In this document: in pieces, positions 8,196-10,170 of the stretch
How positions within the stretch are numbered: position 1 is the first letter of the stretch
Layout: every line of letters starts with the position of its first letter
Assembly (NCBI RefSeq): GCF_021155765.1
Contig: NC_060110.1
Span: 7,191,501 to 7,255,500 of the forward strand
Direction: 5' to 3'
Length of the DNA: 64,000 nucleotides
Source of the DNA: Diprion similis
Taxonomy: Eukaryota; Arthropoda; Insecta; Hymenoptera; Diprionidae
The notes under the pieces: generated by a model
The model's database searches: none
What the model saw: only the letters and a program-made list of their open reading frames with translations
What the model was told of the DNA's origin: nothing
Program-made: the position numbers and the translations under genes

Positions 8196-10170
8196 TTACG
8201 AGGTTTCCATTGCGGCAGTGGTATCCTCGGTGTATTTGCCCTTATCTTTGCCTAGAGCAGCAAGACGTCCCTTGCTCCTCCTGTCGATGATCTTTTTGCG
8301 ATCTTTGTCCATTTTTAGTTTGACAATCACCGTCTAAAAGAAATACAATAAAAATCATTCAGGTTGAAAAATGATCTGTAAAATTGTGAGCTCCGTTTGC
8401 CTTCACTTGATCAAAAAAAGTCTTTTTCAAGTATTAATCAGTGCCAATCTCTCTGCAGCGATTGGACCGGGAAAAACCAGAACTTCAAAATCTAGGAGTA
8501 CCCTAGATATGTCGTCACCAGTAAAACCGTTTGTCCAATCCTATGTGAATGGTTTATATCATCATTTTTAAGTGTTGAATTCAACTGTCTTGTGCTTTAA
8601 GTATTGACAATGTTTGAATTCCCAAAATTTTCAAAATTATCGTAGATTTTTCAGAAAAACCTAGTTACACTGGAAAAATATCTTGCATCACATCCCAACT
8701 CACATTGAATGATGAATTGTATTTTGAGTGGATTATAAATTTGATAAGATAATCAATTTACCTTGGAAGGGTCAATGCCAACATAGACACTCGCTCCGTT
8801 AGCCTTTTCCCTCTGAATTCGTTCAACATAAACGACGAATTTTTTCCTGTACACTTGTACAACTTTCCCAACTTGCTGTCCCTTGTAGTGACCGCGGACA
8901 ACCTGCAGATTGTGAAACAAAAAGAAAAGTAGTAAAAAAAACAGTCGCAAGTGGTTGGCTATATGTAAAGTTGAACTAGTGATTGAGAAAAGTACGCTCA
9001 GAGCCAATTTCTCTGCAGGACATGAACCGGACAAGATTCAAGAGCCACTATTCGAGAAAACCTCGACAGCGGATCAAAAAAATCAAGTCGTCTGTTCACC
9101 TCATCAGTGAATGGTTTGGTTCATCATTGATTAGTCTGTCTTGTCCCGGTTTATGTGAAATACACTTCCGCAGTCCCAGTGAAGCAACCGAAAAAATAAC
9201 TCTTTTTCGCAGATGGTGAACTCGCATTAGACATGTGTTTAATAAGAATCTTGCATTATTTTTTGTTACTACTTCATTGAGGCATGTTCACTTTTGTCTC
9301 ATACATTTGCAATTTGCAAGAGTATAACTAATCAGATAAAATTGAATTGAATAATTTAAAAAAAAATTGGTAACCATAGTATTAAGGAAAGCGTATTAAG
9401 AAGCGCATGTTTCAGTCAGCAAGTACTAGAATAGTTTCTAGTTCTCCATGAAATCGTGTTGTTGTACAATCATATGCATTTTAATTACTGCTTTTTTAAA
9501 GGTCAGACAGACCTTCGAAATCGTTAATCAAATGTTTCAAGTTTCAGGATTATTGAAGTATGTAATTGGTTTTTCGCTTTCAATTGATAACAAAAGAAAT
9601 GTCAAACATACGATTATACTCAGGAAACAGTATTAACATCAGTAGTTTAATAAGTATTATAGTCAGAAAAAAAGATTTGAAAAAATTGTACCAGTGCTGA
9701 TTCATAGTACTTTGTGGAATGTCGAAAATTTTTAAAAATTGATGACCACGAGGAAGATGTGTAGTAGATTTGATGTTGGTCACTTGAAGTAATTACGGCA
9801 GACGAAAGATAAATGACCAAGTGTAGAAGAGTTTCAGATCGACTTCTCTTGAACTCCGTTATAATGTGGTTATAGAGTTATCCTGGTCATGTTGGGTAAC
9901 TTGTATAGCAAGAATCCAAAATACGGGATGCCTGCGAATTCTGTAAGGGATATAAATCGGCCGAGGGATGTTTGAGGTTAGAAGAAGTTAGGTTAGGTTT
10001 ACCTGCACTTCGTCGTCCTTGCGGATGGGCATGGATCGTACGTTGTACTTCTGGCGAAGTTCCTTTGACAGAGGAGCGCTCATTAGTCGCCTTCTGATAT
10101 GGGAAGGTGCGGTGAAATGGCGTTTGCGGTTTTTCCTCCGCGAGGATGAAACCAAGCTGTTAAACTTCAT
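8196..10170 (-). CDS. RpL26: 60S ribosomal protein L26 (uL24)
   Basis: Large-subunit ribosomal protein that binds near the polypeptide exit tunnel. Three coding exons on the minus strand: 10003-10170 (56 codons), 8762-8902 (47 codons) and 8196-8333 (45 codons plus TAA). Total 148 residues against 145 in human RPL26. The protein starts [19 protein letters not shown]. The KOW-type region around [20 protein letters not shown] is in exon 2, and the basic tail ends TTAAMETS. All exon boundaries are phase 0. Both introns (8334-8761 and 8903-10002) contain related box C/D snoRNA-like sequences on the same strand. A TCT-type initiator 39 bases upstream of the ATG fits the usual promoter of this gene class. 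The short UTRs also fit. Confidence 0.97.
8438..8565 (-). ncRNA. Candidate box C/D snoRNA in RpL26 intron 2 (copy A)
   Basis: Read on the host strand, a perfect C box ATGATGA is at 8559-8565 and a D box CTGA at 8438-8441, enclosing 128 nt. The D box is about 103 nt from the 3' splice site, a usual position for intron-processed C/D snoRNAs. An internal hairpin has a perfect 7-bp stem (8490-8496 with 8502-8508). Flanking bases can form TTAA/TTAA and TTCAA/TTGAA pairs as a broken terminal stem. The stretch before the D box, CTGCAGAGAGATTGGCA, is almost the same in copy B, as is AAACCATTCA after the C box. Target not identified. It is long for a C/D RNA, so expression needs proof. Confidence 0.55.
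8998..9127 (-). ncRNA. Candidate box C/D snoRNA in RpL26 intron 1 (copy B)
   Basis: Paralogue of copy A. The C box ATGATGA is at 9121-9127 and the D box CTGA at 8998-9001, enclosing 130 nt. The D box is about 95 nt from the intron's 3' splice site. The D-box guide region CTGCAGAGAAATTGGCT differs from copy A at two places. The middle has drifted but keeps a hairpin: stem 9052-9056/9062-9066, with an outer helix 9045-9049/9068-9072. One outer pair is U-G only if the RNA is minus-strand, which supports host-strand transcription. A CTGATGA stretch just after AAACCATTCA could supply D' and C' boxes. I see no good terminal stem. Confidence 0.55.

What the first reader, a model, noticed from the sequence alone, without database searches (positions are those of the whole stretch)
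8438..9127. Paired box C/D snoRNA candidates in the two introns of RpL26
Seen: both introns hold an ATGATGA C box and CTGA D box on the host strand, 128 and 130 nt apart, with the D box about 95-103 nt from the 3' splice site. The guide region before the D box (CTGCAGAGARATTGGC) and AAACCATTCA after the C box are conserved; the middles have diverged yet each keeps a hairpin with different bases. This is the pattern of a duplicated structured RNA. Inference: the segment after the C box (TAAACCATTCA) could pair, with one U-G pair, with TGGATGGTTTA, which I recall near the 3' end of 18S rRNA. I found no target for the D guide. It may be an orphan or lineage-specific snoRNA.
Basis: partly seen in the sequence, partly recalled or inferred. 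Interest (0 to 1): 0.7.

Follow-up and report, generated by a model that had tools for sequence, protein, structure and literature searches.

The report
Twin orphan snoRNA candidates in RpL26
Both introns of a ribosomal protein gene in an animal genome, probably an insect, carry a diverged copy of the same structured RNA that looks like a box C/D small nucleolar RNA; the paired structure has been kept through many matching changes, but its target is not known.

Summary
Comparing the two RpL26 introns gives one significant match, 141 columns with 89 identical (E 2e-7). It starts 8 nt before an ATGATGA C box and ends exactly at a CTGA D box. The ends are conserved (19 of 22 columns each) and the middle has diverged (36 of 86). 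The middle still folds into one shared hairpin: 22 of 22 chosen pairs stand in both copies, 12 changed on both sides; 0 of 1000 column shuffles fold as well. So this is a duplicated, selected structural RNA, most likely a box C/D RNA. The suggested 18S target is not supported: this genome's 18S reads TGAATGATTTA, leaving a C-A mismatch, and 31 of 40 shuffles do as well. The D guide has no match above shuffles in the rRNA pieces read. An 11-nt pairing with U5 snRNA is weak (55 of 2000 shuffled guides do as well). No Rfam family passes, but this genome's U14 genes fail too. Copy A lacks an adjacent terminal stem, unlike U14. I file it as a probable orphan intronic box C/D RNA: modestly interesting, not a new kind.

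The parts
8998..9127 (-). RNA copy A, in the first intron (intron A) between the coding exons of RpL26
8438..8565 (-). RNA copy B, in the second intron (intron B) between the coding exons of RpL26
9121..9127 (-). C box ATGATGA, copy A
8998..9001 (-). D box CTGA, copy A
8559..8565 (-). C box ATGATGA, copy B
8438..8441 (-). D box CTGA, copy B
9107..9117 (-). conserved 5' element AAACCATTCAC, copy A (its last base starts a CTGA that exists only in this copy)
8545..8555 (-). conserved 5' element AAACCATTCAC, copy B
9003..9018 (-). conserved D guide CTGCAGAGAAATTGGC, copy A
8443..8458 (-). conserved D guide CTGCAGAGAGATTGGC, copy B
9018..9102 (-). internal imperfect hairpin, copy A (alignment columns 29-113)
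8458..8541 (-). internal imperfect hairpin, copy B (alignment columns 29-113)
8903..10002 (-). RpL26 intron A
   Evidence: borders read; protein
8334..8761 (-). RpL26 intron B
   Evidence: borders read; protein

Best explanation
The two elements are cis-duplicated, intron-encoded box C/D RNAs of one family. Shown: two introns, one conserved block each, bounded by C and D boxes, with one shared hairpin kept by compensatory change. Inferred: after splicing of RpL26 pre-mRNA the lariat is opened and trimmed back to a box C/D protein complex on the C and D boxes, which leaves two stable RNAs of roughly 135-140 nt. The hairpin holds the 5' element (AAACCATTCAC) and the D guide (CTGCAGAGARATTGGC) near each other. 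The D guide pairs with a target RNA that I could not identify and directs 2'-O-methylation there, or acts as a chaperone. Two copies in one highly expressed gene give dosage.
For: Significant similarity between the introns is confined to the C-to-D interval and 8 nt before it (run on 1087 of the 1100 nt of intron A). Ends conserved 19 of 22 columns each against 36 of 86 in the middle. 22 of 22 pairs standard in both copies, 12 with both sides changed; sliding the partners leaves 0-1 such pairs. 0 of 1000 column shuffles of the inner part fold as well, z -6.35. Ribosomal protein host, sense strand. D box 95 and 104 nt from the 3' splice site; for the one U14 copy of this genome whose 3' splice site I could make out, 76 nt (my count by eye output). 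Precedent in this genome: two U14 genes among the exons of one eEF1A gene.
Against: No adjacent terminal stem in copy A (at most 2 pairs) and only UUAA/UUAA in copy B, against 5 and at least 9 bp in the two U14 controls. No C'/D' pair shared by both copies. No target above chance. No Rfam family reaches its cut-off. Holding boxes and conserved elements unpaired costs 8.5 (A) and 4.6 (B) kcal/mol against each copy's own best fold. Each copy alone folds only moderately better than its shuffles (7 of 200 as good for A, 12 of 200 for B). No expression data. One genome only, so conservation rests on two paralogues.
Confidence: 0.72

Rival explanations
1. A structured intronic element that acts in cis: the hairpins set RpL26 splicing or lariat fate and no free snoRNA is made.
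For: Both copies sit at a similar distance from the 3' splice site of the same gene. No rRNA target found. No terminal stem in copy A. The D guide pairs 11 nt, with wobbles, with CCAATTTTTTT at 9370 in intron A: 3 of 60 shuffled guides as good for copy A's guide, 13 of 60 for copy B's. PMC10324135, on intronic snoRNAs that regulate host splicing by pairing with nearby intron, was seen in a search listing only.
Against: A cis element would not need conserved blocks that begin and end at C and D boxes. The pairing at 9370 rests largely on a T run, and 13 of 60 shuffles do as well as copy B's guide there.
Confidence: 0.13
2. A box C/D scaRNA that guides methylation at the 5' end of U5 snRNA.
For: 11 uninterrupted pairs (3 wobbles for copy A's guide, 4 for copy B's) between the D guide and CTGGTTTCTCT in 3 of the 4 U5 loci (L065-L067; in L068 another site scores best). 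The one variable guide base (A/G) pairs either way. A long apical hairpin recalls U90 and mgU2-47 (PMC4041459: abstract, section 13 and passages).
Against: 55 of 2000 shuffles of copy A's guide do as well against one U5 and one U2 copy, before counting the other targets tried. The D-5 position is a wobble with wobbles on both sides. The fly box C/D Cajal-body consensus cgaGUUAnUg is absent (best 7 of 10 in each copy, reached by 431 and 408 of 500 shuffles; no GUUA). The terminal helix is made of ordinary pairs, not alternating G-U/U-G (helix 5). Drosophila U5 methylations named in the PMC13228274 passages are at 24, 38, 42 and 46, not near position 8.
Confidence: 0.06
3. An rRNA methylation guide of a known kind whose target lies in 28S sequence that I could not read cleanly, or whose relatives in other insects are already annotated.
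For: The 28S 3' half was read only from isolated, diverged copies, and a short piece between my 28S pieces is missing. AAACCATTCA pairs 7 bp plus 2-3 past a mismatch with 28S TGAATGGATTA.
Against: For copy B's element that 28S pairing is matched in 31 of 40 shuffles; for copy A's the score of 7 is reached in 40 of 40. A D' box could exist only in copy A.
Confidence: 0.09

Closest known systems
Intron-encoded box C/D snoRNAs of ribosomal protein genes
   Same: C box, D box, conserved stretch before the D box, sense strand of a ribosomal protein intron. A PMC2246290 passage says introns of 27 fly ribosomal protein genes host snoRNAs.
   Different: About 130 nt from C to D box against a mean of 91 nt for fly box C/D (PMC13228274 passage). 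Target unknown. No adjacent terminal stem in copy A. RpL26 does not occur in the main text of that fly survey (0 occurrences; its supplements were not read).
U14 (SNORD14)
   Same: C/D RNA, a CATTC motif after the C box, and two copies in one host gene in this same genome.
   Different: The genome has its own U14 pair among eEF1A exons; the RpL26 elements do not match SNORD14 or 78 and lack the CATTCGCGGTTTCCACC seen in both U14 copies.
Intronic box C/D scaRNAs U90 and mgU2-47
   Same: Box C/D RNA with a long apical hairpin (PMC4041459).
   Different: No alternating G-U/U-G stem and no fly-type targeting motif.

Membership tests
box C/D snoRNA | C box RUGAUGA | tested here: met
   ATGATGA in both copies, 9127-9121 and 8565-8559
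box C/D snoRNA | D box CUGA | tested here: met
   9001-8998 and 8441-8438
box C/D snoRNA | guide stretch directly before the D box, conserved | tested here: met
   CTGCAGAGARATTGGC, 15 of 16 identical between the copies
box C/D snoRNA | terminal stem bringing the ends together (common, not universal: a PMC3542256 passage, says 60% of Entamoeba box C/D RNAs have it) | tested here: inconclusive
   copy A at most 2 pairs, copy B UUAA/UUAA; longer-range pairing of the flanks can be drawn but differs between the copies
box C/D snoRNA | complementarity of the guide to rRNA or snRNA | tested here: inconclusive
   none above shuffles in the rRNA pieces read; weak U5 pairing; U1, U4, U6 and tRNAs not tested
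box C/D snoRNA | internal C' and D' boxes (optional) | tested here: not met
   CTGATGA in copy A only; not in copy B
box C/D snoRNA | stable RNA bound by fibrillarin, NOP56, NOP58 and 15.5K | not testable with these tools
   no RNA data
known Rfam snoRNA family | match above the gathering score | tested here: not met
   0 matches in the window; at a relaxed threshold only weak hits, e.g. snoPyro_CD 18.3 bits (cut-off 45), SNORD50 16.9 (42) and snoZ30a 15.4 (80) on parts of the elements. Control: this genome's U14 loci also give 0 at the gathering score
U14 | SNORD14 model and domain A | tested here: not met
   SNORD14 does not appear; U14 is elsewhere in the genome
box C/D scaRNA | Cajal-body element (fly cgaGUUAnUg or vertebrate G-U/U-G stem) | tested here: not met
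   motifs taken from PMC4041459

The most novel reading that the evidence does not exclude
An insect-lineage box C/D RNA family with a large conserved hairpin whose D guide acts on a non-rRNA target (an snRNA such as U5, or the host's own or another pre-mRNA), kept in two copies inside RpL26 so that ribosomal protein output and the RNA are coupled.
Probability: 0.25. Interest if true: 0.55.

Novelty: new member of a known kind. Interest (0 to 1): 0.38.

Why it matters
If expressed, it adds a snoRNA family that Rfam-based annotation misses in this genome, and gives a clean pair for finding an orphan guide's target: two paralogues that keep two short elements and a hairpin shape while the rest has changed. 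It also shows that comparing introns within one gene can find structured RNAs without other genomes. It is not surprising in kind: ribosomal protein introns are common snoRNA hosts.

Tried and rejected
Rfam at gathering and at relaxed thresholds: no family above its cut-off. Third copy in the genome: of the 211 places with up to 3 mismatches to the D-side pattern, 20 were given as loci; I scored the 18 beyond the two copies with my model. The best, L018 at 23.9 bits (E 0.012), has its D-side match downstream of a splice-acceptor-like site in what looks by eye like an exon (not translated); I took it as chance. The other 191 places were not examined, and 211 exceeds the 118 of the backward control. 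The model's two strong hits (152.2 and 149.3 bits) are the sequences it was built from. The D-side pattern has 0 matches in viral contigs and 12 stretches in bacterial contigs (taken as chance, not examined); the C-side pattern has 1 in viral contigs (L037, 15.1 bits; taken as chance). U13 (recalled sequence) was weighed by eye only.

Targets tried: 18S (1910 nt), 5.8S, ITS1, ITS2, 28S pieces (2665, 457, 2100 and 2174 nt; the last two come from diverged copies and run past 28S), 3768 nt upstream of 18S, RpL26 pre-mRNA, U5 (4 loci), U2 (1 locus, L069; my finder missed L070, L071 not tried): nothing convincing. One search used 40 target shuffles per guide, 60 guide shuffles; the rRNA scores carry no shuffle control. 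A 10-nt perfect match of copy A to 5.8S was rejected because copy B lacks it, it is not next to the D box, and 16 of 40 shuffles do as well. Pairing of the 5' element with the D guide (RNAalifold) cannot be judged, because those columns hardly vary. Literature: searches listed 20 of 35, 15 of 1230, 15 of 1825, 0, 12 of 17, 8 of 113, 8 of 17 and 8 of 34 papers; by title and abstract start none of those listed describes a snoRNA in an insect RpL26. I opened 7 papers, passages or sections only: PMC12309372, PMC4041459, PMC10234308, PMC3542256, PMC13228274, PMC2246290, PMC3511168.

Full report
What is there. The window lies in a 269-Mb genome of 60 contigs. The minus strand carries RpL26: coding exons 10170-10003, 8902-8762 and 8333 downward give a 148-aa uL24 protein. 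Introns A (1100 nt) and B (428 nt) have GT...AG ends (read).

The block. A local comparison of the two introns (1087 of the 1100 nt of A; B with its ends shifted by one base) gives one significant match: 141 columns, 89 identical, E 2e-7, starting 8 nt before the C box and ending on the last base of the D box. The three other matches are short and AT-rich, with E 0.19 to 0.50. Within the block the C box plus the 5' element (19 of 22 columns) and the D guide plus D box (19 of 22) are conserved, while the middle is 36 of 86.

The structure. RNAalifold on the sequence-based MAFFT alignment gives a consensus with 28 pairs. I dropped the six pairs between the two conserved elements, because they hardly vary, and kept 22. 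All 22 are standard pairs in both copies, 12 with both sides changed; shuffling partners never reaches this (0 of 500), and sliding partners by 1-3 columns leaves 25-52% of cells paired with 0-1 double changes. The structure was derived from the same two sequences, which favours it over slid versions; the separate test on column-shuffled, refolded alignments is 0 of 1000 at z -6.35 for the inner part and 0 of 500 at z -4.25 for the whole. Each copy alone folds only moderately better than its shuffles (z -1.91 for B, -2.15 for A), and its own best fold differs from the shared one, so the evidence is the covariation, not the stability.

Is it a box C/D RNA? For: boxes at both ends of the conserved block, guide next to the D box, host, strand, distance to the 3' splice site. 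The boxes alone are weak evidence (81 and 19 of 2000 shuffles). Against: copy A has no adjacent terminal stem and copy B only UUAA/UUAA, whereas the two U14 genes of this genome have 5 and at least 9 bp. Papers read in passages say that expressed vertebrate box C/D RNAs mostly have a stable terminal stem (PMC10234308) and that pseudogenes have unstable ones (PMC12309372), and that 60% of Entamoeba box C/D RNAs have one while the rest lack it or use an external or internal stem (PMC3542256). So its lack lowers, but does not exclude, membership; copy A could be a poorly expressed copy.

Rfam. No match at the cut-offs; weak box C/D hits at a relaxed threshold. As a control I looked at U14: the SNORD14 model finds two copies at 38.3 and 36.2 bits, below the 64-bit cut-off, and a plain scan of these loci gives nothing. 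They have clear C and D boxes, U14's domain A (recalled) and terminal stems, and lie among eEF1A exons (my reading of the translations; no family search was run on them). So absence from Rfam says little in this genome.

Targets. The D guides give no match above shuffles in 18S, 5.8S, ITS1, ITS2 or the 28S pieces: the best are 10 for copy A (5.8S, 16 of 40 shuffles as good) and 9 for copy B (ITS1, 38 of 40). Limits: the 28S 3' half comes from isolated diverged copies, a short piece is missing, and U1, U4, U6 and tRNAs were not tested. U5 gives 11 pairs in 3 of 4 loci, but 55 of 2000 shuffled guides do as well on one U5 and one U2 copy, and the Cajal-body motifs taken from PMC4041459 are absent.

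Verdict. A real, duplicated, structurally conserved RNA pair in RpL26, most likely orphan box C/D snoRNAs with an unusually long internal hairpin. Shown: the block, its bounds, the shared hairpin, and only two exact D-side copies in the readable genome. Inferred: that it is processed, bound by box C/D proteins and guides anything. Ribosomal protein genes as snoRNA hosts are common (27 in fly, PMC2246290 passage), so I rate it a new member of a known kind.

Noticed in passing
L002 and L003 (genome C10:7335381-7340352): Two U14 (SNORD14) genes about 1.9 kb apart among eEF1A exons, with canonical C/D boxes and terminal stems; both fall below the Rfam cut-off.
   Followed up: partly
window 9987-9998: Intron A of RpL26 begins GTAAACCTAACCTAAC, a telomere-like (TTAGG) stretch; the 12-mer ACCTAACCTAAC occurs once in the window and in 1 of 100 shuffles.
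   Followed up: partly
8 and 19 nt upstream of the C boxes of copies A and B: A shared 9-mer ACAAGACAG lies upstream of both C boxes, outside the aligned block (flank strings); role unknown.
   Followed up: no
window 9013-9022, copy A: Ten bases (TGTCCTGCAG) are fully complementary to 5.8S CTGCAGGACA; copy B lacks this and 16 of 40 shuffles do as well.
   Followed up: yes
L033, L035, L036: 28S fragments joined to long sequence that looks like a retrotransposon inserted in 28S (seen; not analysed).
   Followed up: no
genome C8:11484425-11487324 and C5:2998498-3006592: Three of four U5 snRNA matches lie within 3 kb and four of six U2 matches within about 8 kb.
   Followed up: no
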